From assembly GCF_900185725.1 (NCBI RefSeq), contig NZ_FYAU01000029.1:124001-188000 (forward strand): a DNA stretch of 64,000 bases, given 5' to 3'. Position numbers and translations under genes: made by a program. This DNA is from Stappia sp. TSB10P1A (lineage in GTDB: Bacteria > Pseudomonadota > Alphaproteobacteria > Rhizobiales > Stappiaceae). The stretch's first letter is position 1. Each line of letters begins with the position of its first letter. Below, one piece after another: positions 22,697 through 44,038 of this stretch. The notes beneath the pieces are model-generated. The model had not been told where the DNA came from. It did no database searches and was given only the letters and a program-made list of their open reading frames with translations.

Positions 22697-22913
22697 TTCG
22701 TGCTCCCTGGCCTGGCTCTTTCGATCGAAAATACAAAAATACCAAAATGCTACCACTTAGCTATGACATTCATCGGCGAGACCGGATCAATTCACGGCCT
22801 ATAAATCGGTTCGCCGCGCTCTGTTGGCCGAGGCCGGCCTTGTGGAATGGTTTGAAGTGGACGATAATTGGATTTATATCACCGTCCGTCTCGGGCAAGC
22901 AACGGAGTTGGTT
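22697..22913. promoter_or_regulatory. AT-rich divergent promoter region of murQ and murA
   Basis: The murQ–murA gap contains an AT-rich run (about 22728–22765). Read on the minus strand it holds two TGGTA direct repeats exactly 11 bases apart, one helical turn. Such TGGTA half-sites resemble targets of HutC/UTRA-type GntR proteins such as the one encoded at 25170. No clear inverted repeat is present, so operator assignment is tentative. The murA frame stays open upstream to 22767. Confidence 0.35.
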
Positions 22914-25078: not shown

Positions 25079-25169
25079 GGCCGGGTGCAAGGCCCGTTCC
25101 GGGCGATGACCGCGAGACATGTCGGGCCTGCGGGTGTGCATGATGTCCGCAAGAAAGGAAAAAACACGG

Positions 25170-25937: not shown

Positions 25938-25946
25938 GAGCCGATC

Positions 25947-29159: not shown

Positions 29160-30139
29160 GCGGCAGGGTTCCAGCAATAGGCCACCCGATCATCGCGGGT
29201 GATGCGGGGGGGCAGGTCCGCGCGGCAGCGCGCGATCACCGCGCCGCACCGATCGGCAAAGGCGCAGCCGGGCGGACGGGCGCCCGGCGCCGGCACGGTG
29301 CCGGGGATCGCCGGCAGGGACACACCCGGCGGATTGGCTGCGGGAATGCTGCGCAACAGCGCTTCGGTATAGCGATGCAGCGGTGTCCGGAACACCGCGG
29401 CGACCGGACCCTGCTCGACGACGCGCCCTGCATACATGACGGCGACGGTGTCGCATGTCTCGGCGACGACGCCGAGATCATGGGTGACGAGCAGGCACGC
29501 CATGCCGAAGCGCTCCCGCATGCGGGCGATCAGTTCGAGGATCTGCGCCTGGATCGTCACGTCGAGTGCGGTGGTCGGCTCGTCGGCGATCAGCACCGCC
29601 GGCTCGCAGGCGATCGCCATGGCAATCATCACGCGCTGGCGCTGTCCGCCGGAGAGCTGGAACGGATAGCGGTCGAGCTGGTCGGGGCTTGCGGGCAGGC
29701 CGACGAGTTCCAGCAGTCGGAGGACCTCGTCGCGGCGCGCGGTTCCGCTCAGGCCGCGATGGATCTCGAGCACCTCGCCGATCTGGGCGCCGATCGTCAT
29801 GATCGGGTTGAGCGAGGTCATCGGCTCCTGGAAGATCATCGCGATGTCGCGGCCCCGAATGGCGTTGAACTCGGCTTCCGAAAGTCCCGACAGCGGGCGA
29901 CCGCGAAAACGGATGTCCCCTGCGGCATGCCGGACCGCAGCCGCCGGCAACAGGCCGAGTATCGACAGCGCCGTGATCGTCTTGCCGCTTCCGGACTCGC
30001 CGACAAGACCCATCATCTCGCCCTCCTCGAGCGCGAGCGACACGTCCTCCACCAGCGCTCCGATGCGCGCTTCCAGCCGAAGCCCGTCGACCGCAAGGAC
30101 GACCTGCTTTGTGGTTGCGGCGGTTGCCGGTAAACTCAT
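29156..30139 (-). CDS. Dipeptide/oligopeptide ABC transporter ATP-binding protein (DppD/OppD-like)
   Basis: ATPase of 327 residues with Walker [14 protein letters not shown], signature [12 protein letters not shown], Walker [17 protein letters not shown] and H-loop THDLGVVAE. The C-terminal [20 protein letters not shown] carries the oligopeptide-type cysteines. ATG at 30139 follows GGAGGAATGGGC; the 84 extra residues of the longer frame have no such signal and cross the promoter region. It is the first gene of the minus-strand half of a split transporter. Confidence 0.93.
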
Positions 30140-30433: not shown

Positions 30434-31948
30434 ATGGTTAGTCTGCGCGCGTTCCTCATTGCATCCGCTGCCGCGCTGGCCATCGGCGCCGCGGCCTCGG
30501 CCCCGGCTTGGGCCGCTTCGCTGGAGGTGGCGGTCGACAGTTCGCCGTCCGGTCTCGACCCGCATATCGTCACGGCGTTCTCGTCGTTCCAGATCATCGA
30601 CGGGACCGTTTATGAAGGTCTTACGGCGCTCGACGGCGACCTCAACATCGTTCCGGGCCTCGCCACCGGCTGGACCATCTCGGACGACAAGAAGACCTAT
30701 ACGTTCACGCTGCGCGACGGCGTGACCTTCCACAGCGGCGGAACCATGACGTCGCAGGATGTCGCCGCGAGCCTGGCGCGGGTTCGCGCCGAGGCGACGG
30801 GCTCACCGCTTGCCAGCCGGCTGACGGCGGTGGAGGCGATCGAGACGCCGGATCCGCTGACCGTCGTGCTCAAGCTGTCGGCTCCCTCCGCGCCGCTCCT
30901 GTCTTCGCTGTCGACGATCGCGATCGTGCCGGCGACATACGCGGAGGATCTCGAGACGCTGCAGCGCGCGCCCGACGGCACCGGTCCGTTTCGCTTCACC
31001 TCCTGGCAGCCGAACGTGAAGATCGGGCTCGAGGCGAATGCCGGTTACTGGCAGGAGGGACTGCCCAAGCTCGATGGCATCAATTTCAACATCGTGCCGG
31101 AAGCGGCGACGCGCCAGGTCGGCCTGACCAGCGGCCAATATCACATCCTGCCCAACATCGATGGGGTGAACGCCCTGCAGTTGCAGGGGCAGCCGGGCAT
31201 CGAGATCGCCGACACGCTGGAACTTGCCTATTCACTGGTCGGGTTGAACGTCAGCCGGCCGCCGCTCGACAATCCGAAGGTGCGCGAGGCGCTCAACTAC
31301 GCGATCAACCGCGACGATCTGGTTCAGGCCGCGCTCTTCGGTGCCGGCAGGCCGGGCGGGCCGCTGTCTCCCGCCCTGACGAATTTCGCGGTTCCGACCA
31401 GCGAATTCGCCTGCTTCACGCCGGACGCGGACAAGGCGAAGAGCCTGCTTGCGGACGCCGGCGTCACAACGCCGGTGGATCTGGGGCTGCTCGTCCTGCC
31501 GCGCGATTCCACCAAGGCGATGGCCCAGGTGCTCCAGCAGCAGTTCGCGGCCATCGGCGTCAACGTCACCTTGAACATTCCGGAGATCGGCCAGTTCGTG
31601 CAGGACTGGCGGAACTCGGAGTTCGACCTGTTCGTCTCGCTCAACTCGGGCACGATCGAGCCGGACGACTACTTCTACCGGACGTTCAAGACCGGCGGGT
31701 CGACCAACGTCTTCAAGTACTCGAACGAGGAACTCGACGCGCTGCTGGAAGCCGGCCGCACGCAGACGGAGGTGGCCGAGCGCCAGACCATCTATCGCGA
31801 GGTGCAGGAGACGCTCGCCTGCGACGGCCCTGTGCTGTTCCTGACCTATGGCCAGATCTACACCGCCATGCGCGCGCAGGTTGACGGCTATCAGATCTAT
31901 CCGAACCGGTCGCTCGCCTCGCTCAAGGCCGTCTCGCTCGGAAACTGA
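30434..31948 (+). CDS. Peptide ABC transporter substrate-binding protein (DppA-like, family 5)
   Basis: Periplasmic family 5 binding protein of 504 residues with a signal peptide (FLIASAAALAIGAAASAPAWA, cut before SLEVAVD near residue 29). The SBP_bac_5 layout is clear: GTVYEGLTALDGDLNIVPGL, TFTLRDGVTFHSG, and NPKVREALNYAINRDDLVQA in the middle. ATG at 30434 follows GGGAGGG. In the context of murQ, nagA, nagK and an AnmK-like kinase, muropeptides or aminosugar peptides are possible ligands, but no sequence feature proves this. A hairpin follows the stop codon. Confidence 0.93.
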   Translation: MVSLRAFLIASAAALAIGAAASAPAWAASLEVAVDSSPSGLDPHIVTAFSSFQIIDGTVYEGLTALDGDLNIVPGLATGWTISDDKKTYTFTLRDGVTFHSGGTMTSQDVAASLARVRAEATGSPLASRLTAVEAIETPDPLTVVLKLSAPSAPLLSSLSTIAIVPATYAEDLETLQRAPDGTGPFRFTSWQPNVKIGLEANAGYWQEGLPKLDGINFNIVPEAATRQVGLTSGQYHILPNIDGVNALQLQGQPGIEIADTLELAYSLVGLNVSRPPLDNPKVREALNYAINRDDLVQAALFGAGRPGGPLSPALTNFAVPTSEFACFTPDADKAKSLLADAGVTTPVDLGLLVLPRDSTKAMAQVLQQQFAAIGVNVTLNIPEIGQFVQDWRNSEFDLFVSLNSGTIEPDDYFYRTFKTGGSTNVFKYSNEELDALLEAGRTQTEVAERQTIYREVQETLACDGPVLFLTYGQIYTAMRAQVDGYQIYPNRSLASLKAVSLGN

Positions 31949-31985
31949 GCCGGCGGCGCCTGCACTGCGAGCACCGAATACCGCT

Positions 31986-32012
31986 GGCGCGGGTCCCGGA
32001 CGGACCCGTGCC
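31986..32012 (+). other. Intercistronic hairpin after the peptide-binding-protein gene
   Basis: GGCGCGGGTCC at 31986–31996 pairs with GGACCCGTGCC at 32002–32012 (11 positions, one wobble) around a five-base loop, 37 bases after the dppA-like stop. No T-run. This is the third case in the window of a stable hairpin directly after an ABC binding-protein gene. Confidence 0.6.
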
Positions 32013-32113
32013 GGACGGCCTCTCCGAAAGTGTCGGCTGACGGTTTGGCCGCAGGCCGGGGAGCGACCGTCGCCTCCCTCGGAACGACATACGGACCAAC
32101 GGCGCTAGAACCC

Positions 32114-33067
32114 ATGCTGTTTCTCAATCGGCTCCGACGGCGACTCTTCGACCTGGCGCTCGTCATCATCGGCGTGTCGGTGCTGGTGTTCGCCTTCATC
32201 CGGATGATCCCCGGCGACGCCGTGGCGATCATGCTCGGCTCCAACGCGGAGGTGACGCCGGAGCGCATCGCCGCGGTTCGCAGCCGGCTCGGCCTCGACC
32301 TGCCGATCCACGAACAGTACATCGCCTGGCTTTCCGACGTGCTGGCGGGCAATTTCGGTGTCTCGATCTGGACGGGGCGGCCGGTGATCGAGGAAATCGC
32401 GGCCCATGTCTGGCCGACGCTGCAACTGACGCTGCTGGCCCTGCTGACCGCCATCGTGCTGGCGATCCCGCTCGGCATCCTGATGGCCCGCATCCGGGGC
32501 AGGCGGGGAGAAGCGCTCGTGCAGGCGGGGTCGGTTGTCGGCCTGACCATCCCGCCGTTCTGGCTCGGCATCCTCATGATCCTGGTACTGTCGAGCGTCG
32601 CCCCCGGCGTGCAGATGCTCGGCTATGTGCCGTTCTTGCAGGATCCGCTCGGCAATCTCACGCGGCTGATCCTTCCGGCCTTTGCCTTGTCGCTGCCGAT
32701 CACCGCCAATCTTGCCCGCTTGCTGCGTTCGACGCTGCTCGAGGCCCTGCAGCAGGACTATATCCGCACCGCCCGCGCCAAGGGCATGCCGGCGCGCCGC
32801 ATTCTCTATCGCCATGCCCTGCGCAATGCGCTGATCCCGTTCGTCACGTCGGTCGGGATCATGGCCGGATATCTGCTCGGCGGGGCGATCGTCATTGAGC
32901 AGGTGTTCGCAATACCCGGTCTCGGCCGGCTGATCCTGGGCGCGATCGCGGAGCGCAACTATCCGCTTATCCAGGCGACCATCCTGCTGGTCACCTGCAG
33001 CTTCGTGCTGGTCAACTTCATCGTCGACGTGATCTACGCCATGATCGATCCGAGGATCCAGGGATGA
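32114..33067 (+). CDS. Peptide ABC transporter permease (DppB-like)
   Basis: Inner-membrane permease of 317 residues with six predicted membrane segments. ATG at 32114 gives MLFLNRLRRRLFDLALVII, the usual DppB opening; the 28 residues of the longer frame look non-coding. LVFAFIRMIPGDAV and the coupling loop IRTARAKGMPARRILYRHAL are DppB features. The end overlaps the next gene by ATGA. Confidence 0.94.
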   Translation: MLFLNRLRRRLFDLALVIIGVSVLVFAFIRMIPGDAVAIMLGSNAEVTPERIAAVRSRLGLDLPIHEQYIAWLSDVLAGNFGVSIWTGRPVIEEIAAHVWPTLQLTLLALLTAIVLAIPLGILMARIRGRRGEALVQAGSVVGLTIPPFWLGILMILVLSSVAPGVQMLGYVPFLQDPLGNLTRLILPAFALSLPITANLARLLRSTLLEALQQDYIRTARAKGMPARRILYRHALRNALIPFVTSVGIMAGYLLGGAIVIEQVFAIPGLGRLILGAIAERNYPLIQATILLVTCSFVLVNFIVDVIYAMIDPRIQG

Positions 33068-33942
33068 GTGGCACCTCCCCCCCGCCCGAACCGCCCGCCG
33101 CAGTGCTTCCGCACCGCCGAGGTCCGCGTCTTCCGGCCCCCACGCTCTACAACATGTCGCTCGGCATGATCGTCGTGCTGGCCATGGCTGCGATCTTCGC
33201 GCCGGTGATCGCGCCCTATGATCCCCTTTATCAGGACATTCTGGCCCGTCTCAAGGGGCCGTCGGCGGCGCATTGGCTCGGGACGGATCAGTTCGGGCGC
33301 GACGTGCTGTCGCGCATCCTGTTCGGCCTGCGCTCGTCGCTGATGATCTCCGGCGGCGCGGTGTTCGCCGCCTTTCTCGCCGGCAGCCTGCTCGGGCTGA
33401 CGGCTGCCTATTACAAGGGCTGGGCCGACCGCATCATCATGCGGCTGATGGACGTGCTGTTCGCTTTCCCGGTGATGCTGTTGGCAATCGGCGTGATCGC
33501 GTTGCTCGGCCCGGGCGCGACCCCGACGGCGACGGCCATCGGTATCGTCTACACGCCGATTTTCGCGCGGCTGCTGCGTGGCCCCGCCCTGGTGGTCGCG
33601 GAAAGCGACTATGTCCTGAACGCAAGGGCGATCGGGGCCTCGGACGCGCGCATCATCTTCCTGCACATCCTGCCCAATCTGGTCAGCGTGATCCTGGTGC
33701 AATTCAGCCTACTGCTGTCGTCGGCCATCCTCGTCGAGGCCTCCCTGTCCTTTCTCGGGCTCGGCACCCAGCCGCCGGTGCCCTCGCTCGGCATGATGCT
33801 GTCGGAGGGGCGCGGCTTTCTGTTCCTGGCCCCTTGGGCCGCGGTTTTCTCGGGCTTTGCCATCCTGATCGTCGCCTTTGCGCTCAATCTTTTCGGCGAT
33901 GCGCTACGCGACGAACTCGACCCGCGATTGCGCCAGGCCTGA
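33064..33942 (+). CDS. Peptide ABC transporter permease (DppC-like)
   Basis: Second permease, 292 residues. The proline-rich start is followed by a membrane helix (MSLGMIVVLAMAAIFAPVIA), the DppC motif HWLGTDQFGRDVLSRILFG and the coupling loop LNARAIGASDARIIFLHILP. ATG at 33064 overlaps the DppB-like stop. The ubiquitin-fold gene at 33983 begins 40 bases after this stop on the same strand, so it could be co-transcribed. Confidence 0.94.
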   Translation: MSGTSPPPEPPAAVLPHRRGPRLPAPTLYNMSLGMIVVLAMAAIFAPVIAPYDPLYQDILARLKGPSAAHWLGTDQFGRDVLSRILFGLRSSLMISGGAVFAAFLAGSLLGLTAAYYKGWADRIIMRLMDVLFAFPVMLLAIGVIALLGPGATPTATAIGIVYTPIFARLLRGPALVVAESDYVLNARAIGASDARIIFLHILPNLVSVILVQFSLLLSSAILVEASLSFLGLGTQPPVPSLGMMLSEGRGFLFLAPWAAVFSGFAILIVAFALNLFGDALRDELDPRLRQA

Positions 33943-33982: not shown

Positions 33983-34219
33983 ATGCAAGACCCTCTGGAG
34001 ATTACCGTCAACCGCCGGCGCTTCGACCGTAACGCCGGCGTGCATGCGGCAATGACGGCCGAAGCCATCGCGACGCTCGTCGGCGTGCCGGTGCGCAACG
34101 CCATTGTCGAGCGCGAAGTCGGCCCCGGCGCCTATGAGCGGCTGGCCCCTGGCGACGAGATATCTGTCAAGACGGGCATGCATTTCCTGGTGACCCGGGA
34201 ATTCGTGATGGGCGGCTGA
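33983..34219 (+). CDS. Small ubiquitin-fold protein ending in Gly-Gly
   Basis: Protein of 78 residues with a ThiS/MoaD or prokaryotic ubiquitin-like pattern: ITVNRRRFDR at the start, MTAEAIATLVGVP as the helix, APGDEISVKTGMHFLV before the end, and a free C-terminal MGG. The pattern of GDEI-V-TGMHFLV resembles bacterial multi-ubiquitin-type domains more than classical ThiS; this comparison is from memory. The mature GG tail suits adenylation and thiocarboxylation by the E1-like enzyme encoded 37 bases downstream. Target (sulfur transfer or protein conjugation) is unknown. Confidence 0.75.
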   Translation: MQDPLEITVNRRRFDRNAGVHAAMTAEAIATLVGVPVRNAIVEREVGPGAYERLAPGDEISVKTGMHFLVTREFVMGG

Positions 34220-34256
34220 GGCGGCCACATCAGGTCCAGCGAAGGGGGGGAGGAGC

Positions 34257-35639
34257 ATGTCCGACCGGGACAAACGGGTCGTTCTCCGGCTGTCGCGCCG
34301 CGACCTCGACGGTTTCGGCGCCGCTCTTGCGGCTGCGACCGGGACGTTCGTCGATTTGCCCATGCTGCTGGCGGCGAGCGAGACGCGCGAGGCCTTGGTT
34401 CTCACCGTCGTCGAAACCGGCGTGGACGCGGCCGTAGCTCCGGAAGCTGGCCGGGATGGTCTGACCGTCGGCCGTGTTCGCATCGTTCCGGCGGATGCCG
34501 GCGCGGGCTTCTCTGGAGCGCTCGAAGACTGGCAACGGACGGTCGCGACCCGGACCGCCGACACGTCCTGCATGGTGTTGGTGGGACTGGGGCAGGCCGC
34601 CGACGCGCCGGTGGAGGTGGCGGCGGTCCATGGCGCGGGCGGCTCCGCAGCAGCGGTGGAGCGTGTCATTATCGAGCGCACGCCGCAGGTTCGCCTGTGG
34701 CGGGGGGGACATCCGCCGGCCTTGCCGGAACTTCCGCCGGAGCGTGTCGCCCGGTTTACCAGTTCCTTTGGCGTGGAGGCCTGGCAGCGCCTGCGCCGCG
34801 CCTGCGCCGTGGTGATCGGTGCGGGCGGCACCGGCTCGGTCGCGATCCCGATCCTGGCACGCGCCGGGGTCGGACGGATCGTTATCGTCGACACGGATGA
34901 GATCAGCGCGTCCAATCTCGAACGGACCCATGCCAGCTTTCCCGAGCATGTGGCGGCGCCTACCAAGAAGGCCGTGCTCGCGCGCGACCATGTGCGCCAG
35001 ATCGACCCCGACATCAATGTGGTCGCCATCGACGGTCGCCTGCCGCAGCGAGCGGTTGTCGAGGCCATCGCCGAGGCCGATGTGCTGCTCGGCTGCACCG
35101 ACCAGCACACGAGCAGGCTTGCCCTCAGCGACGTGGCGCGGCGCTTCCTGGTTCCGGCGATCGACTGTGGCGGCCTGATCGAGGGAGCGAACGGCCACGT
35201 CACCGGCCAGATCATCCAGCTTGTCCTGTTCCGCCCCGACGACCCCTGTCCGCGCTGCCGAGGCATGATCAATGATGTACGGGTGGCGCAGGAACTGATG
35301 TCGCCACAGGAGCGGGCCCGGCTGCTTGCGCAAAGCGCCGGCGGTTCTGTGCCGCCCGAGGCCGCGGACATCCCGCAGATCGATACGGTCGGATACATCA
35401 CCACGGTGAGTGGCACGCTGGCGGCCGGCTACGCGATCGGCTGGCTCACGGGGCGGTTCGATCCGCCGTTCGAGCGCATGCAGATGAACCTCGTCGCCGA
35501 CTGCCTCGACGTGACCAATCGTCCGCAGCGCATCGATCCGGCGTGTGGGTGCCGCCATGCCCGAGGACTTGGCGATGCCGGTCAGGTCTTCGCGCCGTTT
35601 GTTCCGCCCGCGCATTGGCCTCCGGCGCGGACGGTCTGA
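34257..35639 (+). CDS. E1-like ThiF-family adenylyltransferase with extra N-terminal domain
   Basis: Protein of 460 residues, much longer than ThiF/MoeB. Residues about 170–430 are an E1-like Rossmann domain: ATP loop GAGGTG at 188–193, VDTDEISASNLERTH with N220 and R223, CTD at 280–282, and zinc-type cysteine pairs C331PRC334 and C430GC432. Residues 1–160 are unassigned; the layout recalls bacterial JAB–E1 fusions but no HxH metal motif is present, so any JAB domain would be inactive. It follows the Gly-Gly protein gene and should adenylate its tail. ATG at 34257 follows GGGGGGAGGAGC. Confidence 0.82.
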   Translation: MSDRDKRVVLRLSRRDLDGFGAALAAATGTFVDLPMLLAASETREALVLTVVETGVDAAVAPEAGRDGLTVGRVRIVPADAGAGFSGALEDWQRTVATRTADTSCMVLVGLGQAADAPVEVAAVHGAGGSAAAVERVIIERTPQVRLWRGGHPPALPELPPERVARFTSSFGVEAWQRLRRACAVVIGAGGTGSVAIPILARAGVGRIVIVDTDEISASNLERTHASFPEHVAAPTKKAVLARDHVRQIDPDINVVAIDGRLPQRAVVEAIAEADVLLGCTDQHTSRLALSDVARRFLVPAIDCGGLIEGANGHVTGQIIQLVLFRPDDPCPRCRGMINDVRVAQELMSPQERARLLAQSAGGSVPPEAADIPQIDTVGYITTVSGTLAAGYAIGWLTGRFDPPFERMQMNLVADCLDVTNRPQRIDPACGCRHARGLGDAGQVFAPFVPPAHWPPARTV

Positions 35640-35660
35640 CCACAGGATAATCGCGCCGTC

Positions 35661-36665
35661 TCACCTGGAAGCCTGGAATTGCCGTTGCAGCGCCTGCAGC
35701 GACCGATGTTGCGCCCCGTTTGCCTGATGGCTTTCGCCGACTGAGGGATCGACCTCCAGCACCAAAACCGCCGTCTCTCCGACATGGCGCGGCAGATCCG
35801 CCCAGGGCAGATTGCCCGCCCCCAGTTCGAGCCCTTCGCTGGTCAGCGCGTCGAGCGGGATCTCCGCCGGCGCCAGCGCCGGTTCAGGGTAGAAGCGGCT
35901 GTCGCTGACATGCAGCCAGGGCATCTTTGGGTCGACGAAATCGAACGGATGCAGCCGGTCGGCTCGCTCCAGATCCTCGTCGAGGATCGCCGAGAAGCGG
36001 ACATCATCGCGGGTTTCGGCCGGATAGGTTCGGCGCCAGTTGAACAGGTTCGCGGACAGCGTCGCATGGGCCACGTCGACGAACGGCGTGACATTGGCGA
36101 TCCGCTCGCGGTCGAGAAACGTCCGGAATGCGGCGATCTCCCAGGGAAAGAAATGATCGAGCGGTCCGGCGAGGAACGAGGCGCGGTCGCGCGGCAGCAA
36201 TGCGTAATGGCCGACATTCTCGACGAGAAGCCGAATCGGATCGGCTTGCCGGGCGAGCCGCGCAATCGTTGCGTTGAAGCCGTCGCTCGCCTCGGCGCGG
36301 CTCGCCCGTTGCGGCGCGTCGCCATACACCAGACCCCAGTAGCGGTGCACCACCACGTCCTTCGCCCCCGCATCGCGGGCGAAGGCGATCGCATCCAGAA
36401 CCTGATCCGCATCGAAGTCGAGGCGGGTGACGCGGCCGACCTCCTGCAGCGGCACGTGAACGGTCAGGACGAGGGGGCCGTACTCCGCGCGCAGCCGGTC
36501 GAGATTGGCGAGGCAGGTGGCGCGCGCGCGATCCTGCTGAAGATCCCGCGGGCCGAAAGTGTGCAGTTCGAGCACCACCGGCAGTCCGGCGCGCACCAGC
36601 GCCGCCGCCCTGTCGGCGAGTTGCGGATAGTCGACCACGGCGCCCTTGAGCGCGAATGCGGGCAT
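35661..36665 (-). CDS. TIM-barrel protein of the sugar isomerase/AP endonuclease-2 fold
   Basis: Protein of 334 residues starting at ATG 36665, preceded by GAGGGAGCGCC. Repeating strand ends are visible in VVLELHTFGPRD, VLTVHVPLQEVGRV, DVVVHRYWGL, IRLLVENVGHYALLPRD, VTPFVDVAHATLS and MPWLHVSDSRFYPEP. The His and Glu/Asp at these positions fit a metal-dependent xylose-isomerase-like barrel. It lies 11 bases after the CoA-transferase gene in one operon. The substrate is unknown. Confidence 0.65.
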   Translation of the reverse strand: MPAFALKGAVVDYPQLADRAAALVRAGLPVVLELHTFGPRDLQQDRARATCLANLDRLRAEYGPLVLTVHVPLQEVGRVTRLDFDADQVLDAIAFARDAGAKDVVVHRYWGLVYGDAPQRASRAEASDGFNATIARLARQADPIRLLVENVGHYALLPRDRASFLAGPLDHFFPWEIAAFRTFLDRERIANVTPFVDVAHATLSANLFNWRRTYPAETRDDVRFSAILDEDLERADRLHPFDFVDPKMPWLHVSDSRFYPEPALAPAEIPLDALTSEGLELGAGNLPWADLPRHVGETAVLVLEVDPSVGESHQANGAQHRSLQALQRQFQASR

Positions 36666-36676
36666 ACGGCGCTCCC

Positions 36677-37885
36677 TCAGATGCAGCCCGATGCCCGGAT
36701 CCGGGCGACGGCATCGTCGCCGAGGCCGAGCCAGTCGGCAAGCACCTCGTCCGTATGGGCGCCGAGCGCGGGCGGGCCGCGATGCACGGCGGGAGGCGTC
36801 TCCGACATCCGGATCGCCGGTGCCGGGACAGGAACCGTGCCGCCGGAGGGATGCGGCACATCGGCGATCTGTCCGCGGTGGCGGAGCTGCGGATTGGCGA
36901 TGACGTCCGGGATCTCGGCGACGGGTTCGCAGGGAACGCCAACGGCATGCAGGCGGGCGAGGATGTCGGCGGCGTCGGTCGCCAGCCCCCAGGCGTCGAT
37001 GATCGTTTCCAACTCCGCGACATGGGCATTGCGGGCGACAAAGGATGAGAACCGGACGTCCTCGGTCAGTTCCGGCCGCCCCATCGCCTCGGCGAACCGT
37101 GCGAAGTGATGGTCGTTGCCGGCGACGATGTAGACCCATTTGCCGTCGCGGCTCTTGAAGCAGTGGGACGGTGCCAGATAGCGGTCGCGGTTGCCGAGGC
37201 GCGTGTGGTCGATCCCCAGCAACTGAGACTCCGCGATCTGCGTGGTCAGCATCGACAGGGCGCTGTCCATCAATGTCGCCTCGACCACCTGGCCGCGACC
37301 GGTCGTCTGGCGTGCCTGGAGCGCCGCAAGTGCGGCGATCGTCGCATAGAGCGCGGTGGAGTAGTCGCTGACGAAAACGCCTGCCATGGTCGGCGGCCCG
37401 TCCGCCTGTCCGGTCAACGTCATGATGCCGCTATGCGCCTGGGCAGCCCCATCGAAACAGGCATGCGAGGCCATCGGCCCCTCCTGTCCGAAGCCGGAGA
37501 TGCGCACCAGGACCAGACCGGGATTGGCCGCGCTGAGCACATCATAGCCACAGCCCATCTTCTCCAGCGTGCCGGGTCGGAAGTTCTCGATGAGAATGTC
37601 GGCCGTCGCGGCGAGCCGGCGCAGGAGCGCCTGACCATCGAGATGGCGGAAGTCGAGCGAAAGGCTGCGCTTGTTGCGATTGGCGCCGAGAAAGAACAGG
37701 GTTTCGCCGTCGATCATCTCGCCGACGCGCCGACCTTCCTCGCCGCCATCGAGGCGCTCCACCTTGACGACATCTGCGCCAAGGTCTCCAAGCACCTGAC
37801 CACAGAAGGGGCCGGCAATATATCTCGAGAGGTCGAGAACTTTTATGCCGATCAACGCGGAATTATTTGCGGTCTTGCTTGACAT
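36677..37885 (-). CDS. Class III (CaiB/BaiF) CoA-transferase family protein
   Basis: Protein of 402 residues, the normal length of class III CoA-transferases. Family motifs: IGIKVLDLSRYIAGPFCGQV, LGDLGADVVKVERLDGGEE, RNKRSLSLDFRHLDG, ENFRPGTLEKMGCGYD, and the catalytic-type Asp in FVSDYSTALYA (near 172). It would move CoA between carboxylic acids, or racemise an acyl-CoA. ATG at 37885 has no visible Shine–Dalgarno sequence and an inverted repeat begins four bases upstream, so the start or a leaderless transcript deserves attention. Downstream is the TIM-barrel gene. Confidence 0.88.
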   Translation of the reverse strand: MSSKTANNSALIGIKVLDLSRYIAGPFCGQVLGDLGADVVKVERLDGGEEGRRVGEMIDGETLFFLGANRNKRSLSLDFRHLDGQALLRRLAATADILIENFRPGTLEKMGCGYDVLSAANPGLVLVRISGFGQEGPMASHACFDGAAQAHSGIMTLTGQADGPPTMAGVFVSDYSTALYATIAALAALQARQTTGRGQVVEATLMDSALSMLTTQIAESQLLGIDHTRLGNRDRYLAPSHCFKSRDGKWVYIVAGNDHHFARFAEAMGRPELTEDVRFSSFVARNAHVAELETIIDAWGLATDAADILARLHAVGVPCEPVAEIPDVIANPQLRHRGQIADVPHPSGGTVPVPAPAIRMSETPPAVHRGPPALGAHTDEVLADWLGLGDDAVARIRASGCI

Positions 37886-37909
37886 TTATTTATCTTGTGT
37901 CTTGATAAA
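37879..37909 (+). promoter_or_regulatory. Promoter for the MoaD-like gene with overlapping TTTATC/GATAAA inverted repeat
   Basis: TTGACA at 37879–37884 and TTGATA at 37902–37907 are spaced by 17 bases, a good sigma-70-type promoter pointing to the MoaD-like gene at 37932. TTTATC at 37889–37894 and GATAAA at 37904–37909 form a perfect inverted repeat with a 9-base spacer that also contains the direct repeat TCTTG..TCTTG. This covers the promoter and abuts the divergent CoA-transferase start, so it is a likely operator for both. Confidence 0.6.
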
Positions 37910-37931
37910 AGGAGAAAGTAGGAGATTTTTC

Positions 37932-38183
37932 ATGGAAGTTCGCTTTCAGAGTTGGTTGAAGACAAAGACCGGGTGCGCCATTGAGCAGCTTGATCTGTCC
38001 GACGATGTTCGCACCATCTCCGATCTGACAGCGCTGCTTGCCGACCGGCATGCCGAGGCAGCCGCGCTGTTCAACGCCCCCGAGGCCCTGCGCTATGTGG
38101 TCGACCGTCGCTATGTGACCCCCGATCATGAGCTTGCGTCCTCCGCCGTGCTGGAGATCTACCCGCCAGTCACCGGGGGCTGA
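37932..38183 (+). CDS. MoaD/ThiS-family sulfur carrier protein
   Basis: Protein of 83 residues with the MoaD tail YPPVTGG, where the C-terminal Gly-Gly is the site of adenylation and thiocarboxylate formation. The MoaD-like core VRTISDLTALLADRHAE and YRYVT-type strand region (LRYVVDRRYVTPDHEL) are visible. ATG at 37932 follows AGGAG; the longer frame from 37845 overlaps the CoA-transferase gene. It is convergent with, and overlaps by 14 bases, the E1-like gene on the other strand. No other molybdopterin genes are nearby, so a role outside cofactor synthesis is likely. Confidence 0.85.
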   Translation: MEVRFQSWLKTKTGCAIEQLDLSDDVRTISDLTALLADRHAEAAALFNAPEALRYVVDRRYVTPDHELASSAVLEIYPPVTGG

Positions 38184-38952
38184 AAGAGGCAACCGCGCAG
38201 ACCGGACAGTCGGCGCGTTTCTCGATCGCGACCTCCGTCACCCGCGCGGCCATGCCGTCGACAATCAGGATACGGCCCGAGAGGGTATCTCCGTCCCCGA
38301 TCAGGATCTTGATCACCTCCATGGCCTGGAACCCGCCGATCACCGCGAGGACGGGGCCGGCAACGCCGATCTCGGAGCATGACGGCGTCAGCGTCGCGGA
38401 CAGGGCGGCGGGATAGAGGCATCGGTAACAGGGGTGACCGGCGCCGCGATAGGGAGTGAATGTGGTCACCGTTCCGTCGGTCATCTGCGCGGCGCCACTC
38501 ACCAACGGCTTGCGTGCCGTGAGGCACGCCGCCTGCAAGGCATCGCGGGTCGCGAAATTGTCCGTGCAGTCCGCCACCAGGTCATAGGCGGCCACAAGGT
38601 CGGCGGCATTTTCGGCGGTGACCGGAAAGGCATGGGTGACCACTGCCACATGCGGGTTCTGGCGGCGCAGCTTGTCGGCCGCGCTGTCGACCTTGGCGCG
38701 GTCGATGTCGTCGATGGTATGGATCACCTGGCGGTGCAGGTTGGACAGTTCCACGAAGTCGCCATCTGCGATGCCGACTGTGCCGACGCCGGCCGCCGCG
38801 AGATATTGCAGAACCGGTGCGCCCAGTCCGCCGGCGCCGACGACAAGCACGCGGCCGGCCTTGAGGCGCCGCTGGCCCTCCATGCCCCAGCCCGGCAGGA
38901 TCATCTGCCGTTGGTAGTAACGCTGCTCATCGGAATGCAGATCGTCGGTCAT
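38170..38952 (-). CDS. MoeB/ThiF-type E1-like adenylyltransferase
   Basis: Protein of 260 residues, the MoeB/ThiF length. The N-terminal RYYQRQMILPGWGMEGQ is the MoeB arginine-finger segment. The ATP loop GAGGLG is at 39–44, followed by D64 and N71/R74 (SNLHRQ). CTDN is at 129–132. Zinc pairs C175/C178 and C249/C252 are complete, and C192 (PSCSEIGVAGP) is at the ThiF-type reactive Cys position. It should adenylate the C-terminal Gly of the MoaD-like protein. Its start overlaps the SufE-like gene stop. Confidence 0.92.
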   Translation of the reverse strand: MTDDLHSDEQRYYQRQMILPGWGMEGQRRLKAGRVLVVGAGGLGAPVLQYLAAAGVGTVGIADGDFVELSNLHRQVIHTIDDIDRAKVDSAADKLRRQNPHVAVVTHAFPVTAENAADLVAAYDLVADCTDNFATRDALQAACLTARKPLVSGAAQMTDGTVTTFTPYRGAGHPCYRCLYPAALSATLTPSCSEIGVAGPVLAVIGGFQAMEVIKILIGDGDTLSGRILIVDGMAARVTEVAIEKRADCPVCAVASFSPR

Positions 38953-39422
38953 GCGGAGATCGCCTTGTCGGGCCGGAGTGGCGGGCCGGCGGCGGTATCA
39001 TGCGTCGCCCGGGCGGAGCCATAGCCGTGCACATGGCGCAGCAACCGGTAGACGCCGTTCGCACGGTTCGGCGCCATGGCTTCCACCAGGCCGGCCTCGA
39101 TCAGCAGATCGGGCGGGTGGGCCGCAATCTCCTGCGGCCGGCGCCGGTGGTAGAGGCCGACGGCGATGGCAAGCAACCCTCGCATCACCCGCGCATCGGA
39201 ATCGGCGCGAACCTCGACGACGCCGTCGGCCTCGTTCCAGCCAAGATCCAGCCAGACCTGCGACTGGCACCCGTGGAAGCGCGTCTCCTCGCACTTGCGC
39301 GCAGGATCCATCGCCGGCAGCCCTTCTGCCAAGGCAAGGATCAGCTTCATGCGCGCATCCCATCCCTCGGCGGCGCTGAAGCGGGCTTTCAGGTCGGCGA
39401 TGTAGTCAGCGATCGAACCCAT
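38949..39422 (-). CDS. SufE-like sulfur acceptor protein
   Basis: Protein of 157 residues. Cys52 lies in RFHGCQSQVWLDL, the sulfur-accepting loop of SufE, and LPAMDPARK and the IAVGLYHRRRPQEIAA region also match. ATG at 39422 gives MGSIADYIADLKARF; the 80 extra residues of the longer frame look non-coding. SufE normally takes persulfide sulfur from the desulfurase SufS. Here it is translationally coupled to the E1-like gene, so it more likely delivers sulfur to the carrier protein than to Fe–S assembly. No desulfurase gene is in the window. Confidence 0.85.
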   Translation of the reverse strand: MGSIADYIADLKARFSAAEGWDARMKLILALAEGLPAMDPARKCEETRFHGCQSQVWLDLGWNEADGVVEVRADSDARVMRGLLAIAVGLYHRRRPQEIAAHPPDLLIEAGLVEAMAPNRANGVYRLLRHVHGYGSARATHDTAAGPPLRPDKAISA

Positions 39423-39541: not shown

Positions 39542-40669
39542 CTAGGCCGCCGAGCGCGCGGCCGCGAGAACGCCGCCGGCGAGCGGCGTCTTCACGCCCG
39601 TGGTGTGCGGGAAGCTGATCGGCAGGCCACGCAGCGAGCGCATCGCGAGATAGGCGAAGCACTCCGCCTCGACCGCGTCGCCACGCAAGCCGACGCTTTC
39701 GGCCGGAAGGGCCTCCGCGCCGGTGCGCTTGCCGATTTCACGCATCATCACAGGGTTTTTGCGCCCGCCGCCGCACACGATGATCCGGCGCGGACGGACG
39801 GGCAGCAGATCGAGCGCCTTGCCGACCGCACCGGCGGTGAAGGCGGTCAAGGTGGCAGCCCCGTCCTCAAGCCCAAGGCCGTCGGCCATGGAGGCGGAGA
39901 AGTCGAACCGGTCGAGCGACTTCGGGTAGGGAGCCGCCAGGAAGGGGTGTTCGAGCAGGGCTTTCAGTCGCTCCTCGTCGACGGAGCCGCTGGCGGCCAA
40001 GGCGCCGTCCACGTCCATGTCGCCGCCGGTGTGCTGTGCGATCCAGTCGTTGACCGGAGCGTTGGCGGGGCCGGTATCGAAGGCGATCATCTCGTCGCCG
40101 TCGCACCAGGTCAGGTTGGCGACGCCGCCGAGGTTGAGGATCGCGGTTTCGGAGCCGGCGCGCACCTTCCGCAGCGCGGCCTTGTGATAGATCGCCGACA
40201 GCGGCGCGCCGTGCCCGCCCGCCGCCATGTCGGCTGACCGGAAGTCGTAGACCACATTGGTGCCGACGATCTCGGCCATGCGGGCGCCGTCGCCGAGCTG
40301 CCGGGTGTGGCCGCGGACACCGCCCTGGGGCGCCACATGCAGCACCGTCTGGCCGTGGAACCCGACTGCGGCGATGTCGGAGGCGGTGTAGCCATGCTTG
40401 TCCAGGAAGGCGTTGACGGCGAGCGACTGGGCCTCCGTCAGCGCGATCTCCGCCTCGCGGAAGATCGCCGGCTCCGGCCCCTCGAAACGCCATTCGAGGG
40501 CCGCGGTGAAGGTCCGTGCCAGCAGATCGCGAATGTCGACAGGATAGGGCGCGAGTTCCCAGGGGCCGAAGGCCTCGATGCTCTGCCCATCGGTCTTGAT
40601 CATCGCGATGTCGATATAGCCATCCAGAACGGTCCCGGTCATCAGACCGATCGCCCACGCTGGCTTCAT
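39542..40669 (-). CDS. Anhydro-N-acetylmuramic acid kinase family protein (AnmK-like)
   Basis: Sugar kinase of 375 residues. The family openings [10 protein letters not shown] (8–17), [15 protein letters not shown] (103–117) and [10 protein letters not shown] (179–188) are clear. ATG at 40669 follows AGGAGGAATGCG. Canonical AnmK has GLMSGTS.DG and, in the catalytic loop, FDTGPGN followed four residues after the Asn by Asp; here the loop is FDTGPAN and that position is Asn207, followed by Asp208. This marks a divergent subgroup, so the substrate may be anhydroMurNAc or another anhydro or amino sugar. It lies 25 bases after the radical SAM gene. Confidence 0.85.
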
Positions 40670-40694: not shown

Positions 40695-41675
40695 TCAAGC
40701 CGCGGCTTGTCGGCGTTGCATGTGTTGCGGGAAAATTCGGCCAGCGGGCTTGCGACAGTTCTTGCAGTGCCCGACGGAGGCGCGGCCGTGGTCGGCGAGG
40801 CGGCAGCGGAAGGCGAGGGCCCCGGCGAGGACACGGTCGACCCCATCCGTCAGCAGGTTGCCGATCACGCCTGCCTTGCCATGGCTGATGACGCAGACGG
40901 CGACCTCGCCGGTCGGGCCGACGCAGAACACGTGTCCTGCCCAGAAGCAGGGAAGCTGGGGCACCGGAAGATGCGGGAGGACAACCTCCGACAGCATGCG
41001 GTCGAGGGTGCCGTCGTCCTGCAGGGATTCCACCCGGTCGACCGCCTGCTCCGCTCCGCCGGGCAGCAGCGGCTTGACCTTCTCATGCTGGTGGACGCGC
41101 GCCAGCAGCTTCAGGAACTGCGGGTCGTAGTCCTCCAGCGGCTCGTCGAGGTCGATCTGGTAGACGCCGATGGTCAGGTCGGGGCGCGTCCTCTCGGCCG
41201 CGTCGAGCAGGGTCTCCAGCCCGCGCAGGGTTTTCTGGAAGCTTCCGGGCCCCCGGTTGAGATCGTGCGAATAGGCGTTGCCGCCGTCGAGCGAGACGAA
41301 AATCTTGTGCGGGAACTGGACCGCGAGAATCTCGCGCACGCGCTTCTCGGTCAGCATGATGCCGTTGGTGTGCCACTGCAGGGCGACCTCGGGCATCACG
41401 TCCGCCACCGTTGCCAGGAGTTCGGCAAAGCGCGGGTTCATCAAAGGTTCGCCGCGCCAGTTGAGGTGGATGCTCTGAACGTCGACCGACCGGCTGTCGC
41501 GCAGGTCGACGAGCATCCTGCGCAGATCCTCCGGCGCCATGTCCTCCTTGCCATGGCTCTGCTTCGTGTAGCACAGCCGGCAGGCGAGATTGCAGCGGGA
41601 TGTCGGGTCGAGCCAGAGCCAGATCGGCGAGCCGGAGACGGAGGCGTCTGTTGCGCGCAATCGTTCAGGGATCAT
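40695..41675 (-). CDS. Radical SAM protein with SPASM-like C-terminal cysteines
   Basis: Protein of 326 residues. C28, C32 and C35 (CNLACRLC) form the CxxxCxxC site of the SAM-cleaving 4Fe–4S cluster. The GGE-type motif is NWRGEPLMN (72–80) and the barrel continues through FVSLDGGN. C243, C251, C261, C291, C304 and C307 at the C-terminus suit one or more auxiliary clusters of SPASM or twitch type. ATG at 41675 follows TTCGGAGGTGG. It is upstream of the AnmK-like gene in the same operon. No short precursor-peptide gene is visible, so the substrate may be a sugar or a small molecule. Confidence 0.88.
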
Positions 41676-41783: not shown

Positions 41784-42827
41784 CTAACTCCTGTCGCGCG
41801 GATAGTAGAGCGGAACGCACCAATGATTGCGGGCGATCCACTCCGTGTTCGGGAGCGTGACATCGTGCTCCAGGATGCGGTGGCAGGGGAGTTCGTAGAC
41901 CTTGCCGGTCGAGGGTTCGACGGGATCGAAGACGATGTACTTGTAATATCCGCTGGTCATGCCGTCCGGCAGCCGCACCCGGTTCGGATGGCGAAGGTCG
42001 AGAACGTCCCGCGCATAGGCCGCCTTCCACGCGAGGATGTCATCGAGCCGCCGGGTCTGAACCACGCCGAGGGCGGCGGTAAACTCGTCGATGCGATGGT
42101 TCATGCCCTGAATGCGGTAGCGGGAGCCGCGCCCATAGTCGCGATAGGACCGGGCATGCGCGGCAAGGTCCGGATTGCCCGTCACCAGCATGCCACCTTC
42201 GCCCGTCGAGATCGTTTTCGTGGGATAGAAAGAGTAGACGCCGACATCGCCGAAGCTGCCCGCCGCGCGGCCGTGCCATCGGGCGCCGTGGGCATGGGCG
42301 CAGTCCTCCAGCAGCCAGATCCCGTTCTCCCGGCAGTAGGCGGCGATCTTTTCGATATCGAACGCGATATGTCCGCCCACATGGACGATCCACGCCGCCT
42401 TCGGCCGATGCTGCTCCGCCTTGGCGACGAAATCCTCGAAAGAGCCGCACAGGTCATGGCGATTGCAGTCGTAGAAGACCACGGTTCCCCCGGCCTTCTG
42501 GATGGAGCGGGGCGTGGCGAGAAAGGTGTTGGATGGGGACAGCGCGGTCTCGCCCGACAAGCCGATGAAATCCAGCGCCGCCAGGGCGCCGCCGCTCCAG
42601 TTGTTGAAGGCGACCGCCTCCAGTCCCGTCCGCTCGGCCCACAGCGCTTCGAATTCTCGCGTCTGGTCGCCGTCGCTCCAGCGGTTCGAGCGCAGCAGCG
42701 CGCGCCAGCGCGCCAGCACCTCGTCCTCGTCACGGGGATCGAACGCCACCGAAAAAGCGAGCGGCCCGTGCGAGCTCGCCAGAGCCGCCGCCGTCGCGGG
42801 ATCGGCCGGGTGAGGGTGCGAGGTCAT
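41784..42827 (-). CDS. DegT/DnrJ/EryC1/StrS-type sugar aminotransferase
   Basis: PLP-dependent enzyme of 347 residues. The family motifs are FNNWSGGALAALDFIGL, SPSNTFLAT, VHVGGHIAFD, the cofactor-binding LLEDCAHAHG (D175) and the Schiff-base Lys204 in SFYPTKTISTGEGG, followed by NHRIDEFTAALG. Such enzymes aminate keto sugars, usually nucleotide-linked, in secondary metabolism or surface polysaccharides. Its start overlaps the stop of the flavoenzyme gene (ATGA), so the two act together. The radical SAM gene follows after 108 bases. Confidence 0.9.
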   Translation of the reverse strand: MTSHPHPADPATAAALASSHGPLAFSVAFDPRDEDEVLARWRALLRSNRWSDGDQTREFEALWAERTGLEAVAFNNWSGGALAALDFIGLSGETALSPSNTFLATPRSIQKAGGTVVFYDCNRHDLCGSFEDFVAKAEQHRPKAAWIVHVGGHIAFDIEKIAAYCRENGIWLLEDCAHAHGARWHGRAAGSFGDVGVYSFYPTKTISTGEGGMLVTGNPDLAAHARSYRDYGRGSRYRIQGMNHRIDEFTAALGVVQTRRLDDILAWKAAYARDVLDLRHPNRVRLPDGMTSGYYKYIVFDPVEPSTGKVYELPCHRILEHDVTLPNTEWIARNHWCVPLYYPRDRS

Positions 42828-44038
42828 AGAAGCATGTCCTCCCGCTCGGCGCCGAACAAGGCCGCGCCGTCGATGCGCGCATGGACTTCGTACTGGTTGG
42901 CGGCATGTTGGCGGGCGGCCAGCAGGTCGTTGAAGACGCGCAGCAGCGGGCTGCCCCGGTAGAGCGCTTCAGCACCCGCCGCGCGGTACAGTCCGGCGGC
43001 GTGGGAGAAGCACCGGTCGGCGACACGGGTGGCGTTCAGCCGGAAGCTCCTGCGAGCGGCGAGCGGTGTGTCCCGCGCGAGCGCCGCATCCGCCTCGAGC
43101 GTGCCGATGTCGGTCTCCAGCACCGCCCGCATGGCGGCGAGATCGGCGTCGATCGTCGCGCAGAGGCTCTGAACATGCGGATCCTCGGCGATCTTCTGCG
43201 ACAACATCGAGGTACGCGCGCCATTTGCGGCGAGGAAATCGGCGAGCATGCCGGCAAGTCCGCCGATCGAGGCCGTCGAGATCGTACGAAACTGCAGTTG
43301 CGGGACGGGTATGCGGTAGAGCGGGCCGGTGTTGACGGCATGGCCGGGGCAACGACCGAGAAAGCGCTCGCGATGCGGCAGCACCCGGTGGCCCGGCACG
43401 CGGACGGTGTCGACGCGAATGCCATGGCTGCCGGTGCCGCGCAGGCCGACGACATCCCAGTCGGGGGCAATGACGATATCGCGCCGGGGCAGCAGCACGG
43501 CAGAGGGGATCGGCGCAGCACCCGGGTCTTCGGCCTCGCACAGGGCGCCGAGAACCACCCAGTCCGCGTGGTCGACGCCGCTCGAAAACCGCCATTGGCC
43601 GCTCAGCTCGAAGCTGCCGTCCGGAAGCCGCCGCCCGCGGCCGCCCGGCATGTTGCTGGAGGCAAGGATGGCCTCGGGCGCCTCGCCCCACACATCGGCC
43701 TGGGCTTGCGGGGCAAACAAGGCCAGATGGAAGGCGACGATGCCCATGTTGCCCAGAACCCAGCTTGCCGACATGTCGGCTTCGCCGAGGACCGCCTGCA
43801 GGCGCAGCAAGGTGCGCGGCGAGGCTTCCTGGCCACCAAAGGCGCGCGGCTGCAGGAGCGAGAAAAATCCGTTCGCGCGGAACTCGGCCACCGTCTCGGC
43901 ATCGAGCCGGCAGGCGCGCTCGTCATCCGGCGCACGCCGCCGCAGGGCCGCCAACAATGTCCGCGCCGCCGCCATGAGCGGCTCGTCAAGCGGAGTCGGA
44001 GTGCCGGTATCCCCGCCGGCCTCTCGCAATGCTAGCAT
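42824..44038 (-). CDS. Acyl-CoA-dehydrogenase-fold flavoprotein (flavin-dependent monooxygenase-like)
   Basis: Protein of 404 residues. The N-terminal helical region (LRANGFFSLLQPRAFGGQE-like pattern near 60–80), the WVLGNMGIVAFHLALF segment, the beta domain with LSGQWRFSSGVDHADWVVLGA and the C-terminal four-helix bundle ending HAANQYEVHARI match the acyl-CoA-dehydrogenase-like class D monooxygenases (HsaA, HpaB and nitrososynthase relatives). The classical dehydrogenase Glu region is not recognisable. ATG at 44038 follows ATGGAGGCG. It leads an operon with a DegT aminotransferase, so N- or C-oxygenation of an amino sugar is possible. Confidence 0.78.
   Translation of the reverse strand: MLALREAGGDTGTPTPLDEPLMAAARTLLAALRRRAPDDERACRLDAETVAEFRANGFFSLLQPRAFGGQEASPRTLLRLQAVLGEADMSASWVLGNMGIVAFHLALFAPQAQADVWGEAPEAILASSNMPGGRGRRLPDGSFELSGQWRFSSGVDHADWVVLGALCEAEDPGAAPIPSAVLLPRRDIVIAPDWDVVGLRGTGSHGIRVDTVRVPGHRVLPHRERFLGRCPGHAVNTGPLYRIPVPQLQFRTISTASIGGLAGMLADFLAANGARTSMLSQKIAEDPHVQSLCATIDADLAAMRAVLETDIGTLEADAALARDTPLAARRSFRLNATRVADRCFSHAAGLYRAAGAEALYRGSPLLRVFNDLLAARQHAANQYEVHARIDGAALFGAEREDMLL

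What the first reader, a model, noticed from the sequence alone, without database searches (positions are those of the whole stretch)
33983..39422. Two different ubiquitin-fold carrier/E1 pairs plus a SufE-like protein inside an aminosugar gene cluster
Within 5.5 kb there are two proteins ending in a free Gly-Gly (78 and 83 residues), two E1-like enzymes (460 and 260 residues) and a SufE-like sulfur acceptor coupled to one E1. None of the usual thiamine or molybdopterin genes are adjacent. Sulfur-carrier/E1 pairs are known to supply sulfur in secondary metabolism such as thiosugar and thioamino-acid synthesis. A duplicated set beside sugar kinase, aminotransferase and radical SAM genes suggests an undescribed sulfur-insertion or protein-conjugation pathway.
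Basis: partly seen in the sequence, partly recalled or inferred. Interest (0 to 1): 0.82.

Follow-up and report, generated by a model that had tools for sequence, protein, structure and literature searches.

The report
Two-carrier sulfur cassette beside wall-sugar genes
A set of eleven genes, kept together in several genera of bacteria, combines two different ubiquitin-like carrier systems and a sulfur donor with enzymes for a cell-wall sugar, which points to an undescribed pathway that puts sulfur into a sugar-derived compound.

Summary
UblA/E1A and UblB/MoeB/SufE lie at the stated coordinates, inside an 11-gene cassette that also holds a sugar-epimerase-like TIM barrel, CaiB, AnmK, radical SAM, DegT and flavin monooxygenase genes. 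All eleven genes are present in 17 of 18 loci compared; the other is cut by a contig end. The loci span eight genera and several gene orders. The cassette adds to housekeeping ThiS/MoaD, SufE and AnmK copies. The two pairs are not duplicates: UblB/MoeB is MoaD/MoeB-like, whereas UblA/E1A is related to Bub (ubiquitination-like) JAB-E1 systems but lacks a detectable E2. In 8 loci E1A keeps the JAB protease motif and UblA has 2-10 residues after Gly-Gly; in 9 the motif is lost and UblA ends exactly at Gly-Gly, with at least two independent losses. So the Gly-Gly end matters, and the JAB domain probably matures it. Best reading: a sulfur-insertion pathway acting on a muramic-acid-type sugar. No reaction or product was shown; UblA's role is open.

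The parts
33983..34219 (+). UblA, ubiquitin-like carrier, 78 aa, ends MGG
34257..35639 (+). E1A, adenylating enzyme with a degenerate N-terminal JAB region; related to BubCD
35661..36665 (-). TIM-barrel protein, sugar 3-epimerase-like fold
   Evidence: no Pfam match; AlphaFold2 model and Foldseek
36677..37885 (-). CaiB-family (type III) CoA transferase
   Evidence: E 5.8e-123
37932..38183 (+). UblB, MoaD/ThiS-like carrier, ends PPVTGG
38170..38952 (-). MoeB-like adenylyltransferase, no rhodanese match
38949..39422 (-). SufE-like sulfur acceptor; Cys in GCQS invariant in 8 of 8 aligned
39542..40669 (-). AnmK, anhydro-MurNAc kinase
   Evidence: NF007141 479 bits, cut-off 352; 3cqy E 1.1e-47; substrate not tested
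40695..41675 (-). radical SAM/SPASM protein
41784..42827 (-). DegT-family aminotransferase
42824..44038 (-). acyl-CoA-dehydrogenase-fold flavin monooxygenase (HsaA type)
30434..33942 (+). peptide-type ABC importer: binding protein and two permeases
   Evidence: for the binding protein (below all equivalog cut-offs); permeases by match to annotated Terrarubrum genes
28161..30133 (-). OppF and OppD ATPases of the importer
   Evidence: match to annotated Terrarubrum genes
24197..28144 (+). amino-sugar genes: BadF-type kinase (NagK-like), GntR regulator, NagB-II-like SIS protein, NagA
   Evidence: GntR by match to annotated Terrarubrum gene
22824..24173 (+). second MurA
   Evidence: TIGR01072 519 bits, cut-off 392.7
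21779..22756 (-). MurQ-like MurNAc-6-P etherase (start codon uncertain)
   Evidence: 49.7% to annotated Terrarubrum MurQ, E 2e-71

Best explanation
The region is the core of an accessory 11-gene cassette that most likely makes or remakes one compound from a muramic-acid-type amino sugar and gives it sulfur. SHOWN by sequence: the eleven genes travel together; they sit beside amino-sugar genes or a peptide-type importer; they are additional to housekeeping copies; UblA's Gly-Gly end is conserved, and residues beyond it occur only where the JAB motif of E1A is intact. INFERRED: (1) anhydro-MurNAc or a similar sugar is phosphorylated by AnmK. (2) A SufS-type desulfurase loads SufE, which passes persulfide sulfur to MoeB/UblB, so UblB becomes a thiocarboxylate. 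(3) CaiB activates a carboxylate (perhaps the lactyl group of muramic acid) as a CoA ester and UblB-COSH delivers sulfur to it, by analogy with PDTC/quinolobactin-type clusters. (4) Radical SAM plus DegT exchange a hydroxyl for an amine, the TIM protein isomerises the sugar, and the flavin monooxygenase oxidises N, S or C. (5) The JAB domain trims UblA, and UblA/E1A, lacking an E2, acts as a second carrier (of sulfur or an acyl intermediate) and not as a protein tag. Step 5 is the least certain.
For: 11 of 11 genes in 17 of 18 loci, 10 of 11 in a locus cut by a contig end, in several gene orders. Amino-sugar or importer genes next to it in 18 of 18. In the genus, the 7 genomes with the cassette have 2 AnmK, 3 ThiS/MoaD-family and 2 SufE genes; the other 7 have 1, 2 and 1, except G001 with two equal AnmK hits. 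SufE, MoeB and CaiB keep this order in 17 of 18, SufE and MoeB overlap by 4 bases in the window, MoeB has no rhodanese match, and a SufS-type gene is present in 5 of 18 loci. JAB motif and UblA tail: 8 loci with both, 9 with neither, none mixed, lost at least twice. No relative of the Paracoccus or Celeribacter E2 in 18 of 18 loci (tblastn E <= 0.01).
Against: No biochemical evidence. 13 of 18 held stretches show no SufS match, so the desulfurase would act in trans. In Terrarubrum SufE lies next to E1A and apart from MoeB, so which E1 it serves is unsettled. The nearest solved relative of E1A belongs to a conjugation-type pathway. The importer and NagA/NagB/MurQ genes fit breakdown as well as synthesis, and I saw no exporter (not searched for systematically). 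AnmK's substrate may differ.
Confidence: 0.55

Rival explanations
1. UblA/E1A is a protein-conjugation system, a streamlined Bub pathway that tags an enzyme of the cluster, while only UblB/MoeB/SufE carries sulfur.
For: The E1A model's nearest solved structure is Citrobacter BubCD, ranks 1-8, and the best profile match is BubCD, 3.6e-21. UblA resembles Multi_ubiq. Dual-function carriers such as Urm1 exist (abstract in the listing, PMC5349211).
Against: No E2 or DUF6527 relative detected in 18 of 18 loci. The BubCD tyrosine Y370 is absent in 8 of 8 cassette E1As aligned and present in 3 of 3 Bub E1s; its role was not readable here. The JAB motif, which could also deconjugate, is lost in 9 loci.
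Confidence: 0.22
2. The cassette is catabolic: it breaks down a sulfur-bearing or otherwise modified muramic-acid sugar or muropeptide taken up by the importer, and the carriers accept sulfur or acyl groups during breakdown.
For: Importer, NagA, NagB-II, MurQ and GntR genes beside it; TonB receptor and symporter in Nitrospirillum; a Croceicoccus MurNAc-type locus with AnmK and a radical SAM relative but no carriers.
Against: SufE, SufS and adenylating E1s normally donate sulfur. DegT, radical SAM and CaiB with carriers resemble biosynthesis more (recalled).
Confidence: 0.15
3. An ordinary accessory copy of molybdopterin or thiamine genes.
For: UblB's best named model is moaD (41 bits) and MoeB passes the MoeB subfamily model NF004281 (297 bits, cut-off 266).
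Against: UblB is under the moaD cut-off (66) and MoeB under the moeB equivalog cut-off (242 against 377). Two other ThiS/MoaD-family genes lie elsewhere in the genome. The set is shared as a block with sugar and radical SAM genes.
Confidence: 0.04

Closest known systems
PDTC / quinolobactin thiocarboxylate siderophore clusters (row 4a of Table 1, Iyer 2006, PMC1779556; passages seen)
   Same: ThiS/MoaD-like carrier, E1, JAB and a CaiB-like CoA transferase in one cluster
   Different: Here MoeB has no rhodanese match and SufE is present; the JAB is fused to a second E1; a second carrier and AnmK, radical SAM, DegT, TIM and flavin monooxygenase genes are present; no AMP-acid ligase seen among the cassette genes
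Bub (bacterial ubiquitination-like) operons, class 6e polyUbl systems (PMC13373217 and PMC1779556, passages; PDB 9ea4 and others)
   Same: Ubiquitin-like protein of the Multi_ubiq type with a JAB-E1 fusion; a Gly-Gly followed by a short tail in two Bub carriers and in 8 cassette carriers
   Different: Single Ubl domain, no E2 or DUF6527 detected, Y370-equivalent absent, JAB motif lost in 9 loci, metabolic context
CsdA-CsdE-TcdA sulfur relay of E. coli (recalled)
   Same: A SufE/CsdE-type acceptor beside an E1-like enzyme
   Different: A separate MoaD-like carrier is present, and the E1 is MoeB-like (MoeB model 297 bits, TcdA model 58 bits)
MurNAc/anhydro-MurNAc and GlcNAc utilisation (AnmK, MurQ, NagA, NagB, BadF-type kinase)
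   Same: Same enzyme families next to the cassette
   Different: The known route needs no carriers, E1s, radical SAM, DegT or CaiB (recalled); G013 has such a locus without any cassette gene match

Membership tests
Bub / class 6e ubiquitin-like conjugation | JAB domain fused to an E1 domain | tested here: met
   Bosea E1A: Prok-JAB 27.7 bits, cut-off 25, model matches BubCD. The window's own N-terminal domain has no Pfam match.
Bub / class 6e ubiquitin-like conjugation | Intact JAMM motif | tested here: inconclusive
   Intact in 8 loci, lost in the window and 8 others
Bub / class 6e ubiquitin-like conjugation | E2-like protein in the operon | tested here: not met
   No match to the Paracoccus or Celeribacter E2 in 18 of 18 loci (a very diverged E2 could be missed); none annotated near the Terrarubrum copy
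Bub / class 6e ubiquitin-like conjugation | Tandem Ubl repeats | tested here: not met
   UblA has one domain of 72-93 aa in 15 loci; Iyer 2006 notes one solo case
Bub / class 6e ubiquitin-like conjugation | Tyrosine equivalent to BubCD Y370 | tested here: not met
   Absent in 8 of 8 cassette E1As aligned, present in 3 of 3 Bub E1s
PDTC/quinolobactin-type thiocarboxylate pathway | MoaD/ThiS-like carrier ending in Gly-Gly with an E1 and CaiB | tested here: met
PDTC/quinolobactin-type thiocarboxylate pathway | E1 with a rhodanese domain | tested here: not met
   No rhodanese match in MoeB or E1A
PDTC/quinolobactin-type thiocarboxylate pathway | Carrier thiocarboxylate and a thioacid product | not testable with these tools
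   Needs mass spectrometry
Moco or thiamine biosynthesis | Neighbouring MoaE, ThiG or other pathway genes | tested here: not met
   None among proteins scanned or annotated near the Terrarubrum copy
SufE-type sulfur acceptor | Conserved persulfide cysteine in the GCQS motif (motif role recalled) | tested here: met
   Invariant in 8 of 8 aligned and in the further SufEs printed
Anhydro-MurNAc kinase | AnmK model score and alignment to solved AnmK | tested here: met
   NF007141 479 bits, cut-off 352; 3cqy E 1.1e-47; activity not tested

The most novel reading that the evidence does not exclude
A ubiquitin-conjugation module of the Bub type has been turned into a small-molecule carrier. It has no E2, lacks the E1 tyrosine and lost its protease at least twice, and it works beside a classical MoaD-type sulfur carrier to build a sulfur-bearing compound from peptidoglycan-derived muramic acid. 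It would be a traceable case of a protein-tagging system becoming a metabolic carrier.
Probability: 0.33. Interest if true: 0.88.

Novelty: new variant of a known kind. Interest (0 to 1): 0.74.

Why it matters
Carrier/E1 pairs link sulfur chemistry to the origin of ubiquitin. Here a conjugation-type pair and a sulfur-type pair share one metabolic cassette, and natural losses show which part is needed: the Gly-Gly end stays, and the protease motif goes when the tail goes. If the product is a sulfur-containing muramic-acid derivative, it would be a new use of peptidoglycan fragments, possibly a metal chelator or a signal. The cassette occurs in cultured environmental bacteria, so it can be tested directly.

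Tried and rejected
Moco or thiamine explanation: disfavoured by neighbourhood and copy number. 'Duplicated set': rejected, the pairs are of different families. Anti-phage E1-E2 models (PADLOC): the listed matches (25 of 29 families for E1A) cover only the E1 domain. The Gly-Gly end of MoeB in relatives: of 16 MoeBs printed, 5 end in PPVTGG, 9 hold it internally and 2 lack it; I set it aside because it is the antisense reading of UblB's own PPVTGG codons where the genes overlap tail to tail, and the window's MoeB lacks it. TIM gave no Pfam match and no significant PDB sequence match; its fold gave the family. UblA gave no PDB sequence match. The AnmK of Caulobacter S45 first looked split; part of it reads N in the held data, so it says nothing.

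Paper searches: searches found 0 papers; two listed 9 and 6, none with a title on this gene set; others listed only part of 230-398 hits, largely unrelated; 62 (peptidoglycan recycling) listed 11; one listed 2. Iyer 2006 and PMC13373217 were seen as passages only. Gong 2025 and Ye 2026 on Bub are known only from a reference list. So 'undescribed' means not found in an open-licence library.

Of the 19 loci, the 5 weak ones (21-29% identity, L056-L060) were not examined. L034 was not in the tree or in the tables; its UblA and E1A are. L047, L050, L051 and L053 are not in the E1A structure alignment A9.
Full report
WHAT IS THERE. UblA (78 aa) resembles the Multi_ubiq family (22 bits, under the cut-off; over it in the Bosea orthologue, under it in the Terrarubrum one) and ends in Gly-Gly. 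E1A (460 aa) has a ThiF domain at 169-405 and an N-terminal domain without a Pfam match. UblB (83 aa) is MoaD/ThiS-like, MoeB (260 aa) is MoeB-like without a rhodanese match, and SufE (157 aa) is SufE/CsdE-like. Around them lie a CaiB-type CoA transferase, a TIM-barrel protein, AnmK, a radical SAM/SPASM protein, a DegT aminotransferase and a flavin monooxygenase of the acyl-CoA-dehydrogenase fold. Upstream are a peptide-type importer and MurQ, MurA, BadF-type kinase, GntR, NagB-II-like and NagA genes.

IS IT ONE SYSTEM? Among 151 related genomes, E1A orthologues (530-1012 bits) occur in 7, all within the window's genus (14 genomes searched); the next hit has 88 bits. Another 142 genomes match only through general E1 domains (149 of 151 in all). 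The radical SAM gene occurs in the same 7 of 14. A scan of named genomes with the radical SAM alignment returned 19 loci, 14 of them at 58% identity or more: Stappia, Chelatococcus, Bosea, Salinarimonas, Nitrospirillum, Caulobacter, a Sphingopyxis MAG and a MAG labelled Rhodobacteraceae that is the contig of genome G006 (equal contig length). A plasmid of Terrarubrum flagellatum holds a shuffled copy. After removal of repeats of the same genome, 17 of 18 loci hold all eleven genes; the Sphingopyxis contig, which begins inside E1A, holds ten. Gene order differs between Stappia, Stappia indica, Terrarubrum, Nitrospirillum and Bosea, so the set is kept while the order is not. It is rare and patchy: E1A in 1 of 398 genomes sampled across the phylum and radical SAM in 1 of 385 across the class, the window's own genome both times (E <= 1e-40).

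IT IS EXTRA TO HOUSEKEEPING. In the genus, the 7 cassette genomes have two AnmK, three ThiS/MoaD-family and two SufE genes. The other 7 have one, two and one, except that G001 (89% complete, 7% contaminated) shows two AnmK hits of equal score. The other AnmK of the window's genome is 64% identical to the cassette's. A MurA over the model cut-off is found in the 7 cassette genomes and in G013 (8 of 14); a lower-scoring MurA (310-322 bits) is found in 13 of 14. In G013 the extra MurA lies with BadF-type kinase, MurQ, NagA and SIS genes and no match to any cassette gene in the 19.9 kb read. So MurA and BadF belong to the sugar part, and the cassette is an addition to such a locus. A Croceicoccus plasmid has a radical SAM relative (36%) and an AnmK (41%) in a MurNAc-type locus, again without carriers.

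TWO PAIRS OF DIFFERENT KIND. An AlphaFold2 model of the Bosea E1A (mean pLDDT 82) matches Citrobacter BubCD best (E 8.4e-26, TM 0.64/0.71; eight BubCD chains rank first, then ThiF at 5e-13). The profile search agrees (3.6e-21, profile positions 67-311). Bub stands for bacterial ubiquitination-like (passages of PMC13373217). Bub operons in Paracoccus and Celeribacter carry multiubiquitin, E2, JAB-E1 and DUF6527 genes; the Citrobacter one has multiubiquitin, JAB-E1 and DUF6527 annotated. Iyer et al. described the class as polyUbl, inactive E2 and JAB-E1 (PMC1779556, passages). The cassette form has a single Ubl, and tblastn with two E2 and two DUF6527 proteins finds nothing in 18 of 18 loci at E <= 0.01, although each finds its own kind in the Bub loci. 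BubCD Y370, mutated in structure 9eav (placed), has no tyrosine counterpart in 8 of 8 cassette E1As aligned, against 3 of 3 Bub E1s. The paper on its role could not be read, so none is claimed.

THE NATURAL EXPERIMENT. In Terrarubrum, four Nitrospirillum, two Bosea and Salinarimonas the N-terminal domain of E1A keeps E, HxH and S..D of the zinc-protease motif (motif as given in the abstract of PMC300881 in the listing), and UblA has residues after Gly-Gly: ANDARERILS, HG, SMAGERA, SPAGDGA or APAADGR. In the window, six other genomes of its genus, Chelatococcus and Caulobacter S45 the motif is lost and UblA ends exactly at Gly-Gly. That is 8 with both and 9 with neither, none mixed; the Sphingopyxis contig cannot be scored. 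In the eight E1As aligned with Bub E1s, the four intact ones keep 5 of 5 motif residues and the four others at most 1. On a tree of six other cassette proteins from 17 loci, Caulobacter joins Nitrospirillum (support 0.947). With the motif intact in 3 of 3 Bub E1s, tail and motif were lost together at least twice. Two of three Bub carriers end in Gly-Gly plus two residues; the Citrobacter carrier does not. The simplest reading is that the JAB domain trims UblA, that the Gly-Gly end is what matters, and that no deconjugating or releasing step by JAB is needed.

SULFUR SUPPLY. SufE and MoeB overlap by four bases in the window; SufE, MoeB and CaiB keep this order in 17 of 18 loci, but in Terrarubrum SufE follows E1A. 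A SufS-type desulfurase gene lies after CaiB in 5 of 18 loci: four Nitrospirillum and Sphingopyxis. The Nitrospirillum BR 11622 protein scores 542 bits on TIGR01979, cut-off 475. The other 13 stretches show no match, so a desulfurase would act in trans there. The CsdE-TcdA relay of E. coli is a precedent (recalled).

ENZYMES AND A POSSIBLE ROUTE. The TIM protein (model pLDDT 88) is nearest to D-tagatose and allulose 3-epimerases (8xix, E 4.7e-10, TM 0.56/0.64). Its candidate metal residues E149, D197, H252 and E304 are invariant in 14 of 14 (their assignment is my inference). The flavoprotein is nearest to HsaA-type hydroxylase and also matches Rv3094c, HPAH C2 and DszC. A MoaD-like carrier with E1, JAB and CaiB is the set of the PDTC/quinolobactin clusters. 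Together with AnmK this suggests that a carboxylate, perhaps the lactyl group of muramic acid, is activated as a CoA ester and receives sulfur from UblB-COSH, while radical SAM plus DegT add an amine (compare BtrN/BtrS, recalled). These steps are inferred. The importer (peptide type, or TonB receptor plus symporter in Nitrospirillum BR 12005) may bring in the sugar or retrieve the product.

VERDICT. A real, conserved gene set, undescribed as far as could show, and a new variant of carrier/E1 chemistry with an unusual Bub-related second pair. The product and the role of UblA are open.

Noticed in passing
window 38160-38183; relatives such as L036 13699-13723: UblB and MoeB overlap tail to tail across a near-palindrome that encodes PPVTGG on both strands, so MoeB of many relatives reads PPVTGG too (5 of 16 end in it, 9 of 16 hold it internally); the window's MoeB is in another frame.
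   Followed up: partly
L068 6901-13377 (G013): A sister genome has BadF, SIS, NagA, BadF, MurA and MurQ without any cassette gene: a natural comparison of the sugar locus alone.
   Followed up: partly
L062 11767-29603 (Croceicoccus marinus plasmid): MurNAc-type locus with AnmK, NagA, MurQ, GntR, BadF, SIS, a GlcD-like FAD oxidase, a phosphatase related to MupP and a radical SAM relative (36%), but no carriers or E1.
   Followed up: partly
L050 8909-9757 (-) and L062 12852-13760 (-): A PP2C-like protein (PF13672 19.3 bits, under the cut-off) lies between BadF and the radical SAM gene in Nitrospirillum; a similar-looking frame follows AnmK in Croceicoccus (by eye).
   Followed up: no
window 44262-48220 (-): A GGDEF/EAL-looking protein and a binding-protein-like gene overlap by 4 bases just outside the cassette (named by eye); Terrarubrum has a binding protein and an ATP-binding protein beside its copy.
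   Followed up: no
L040 8310-11100 (G148): Another JAB-E1-like gene (33% to E1A over 166-354) with small neighbours, possibly a Bub- or Bil-like operon.
   Followed up: no
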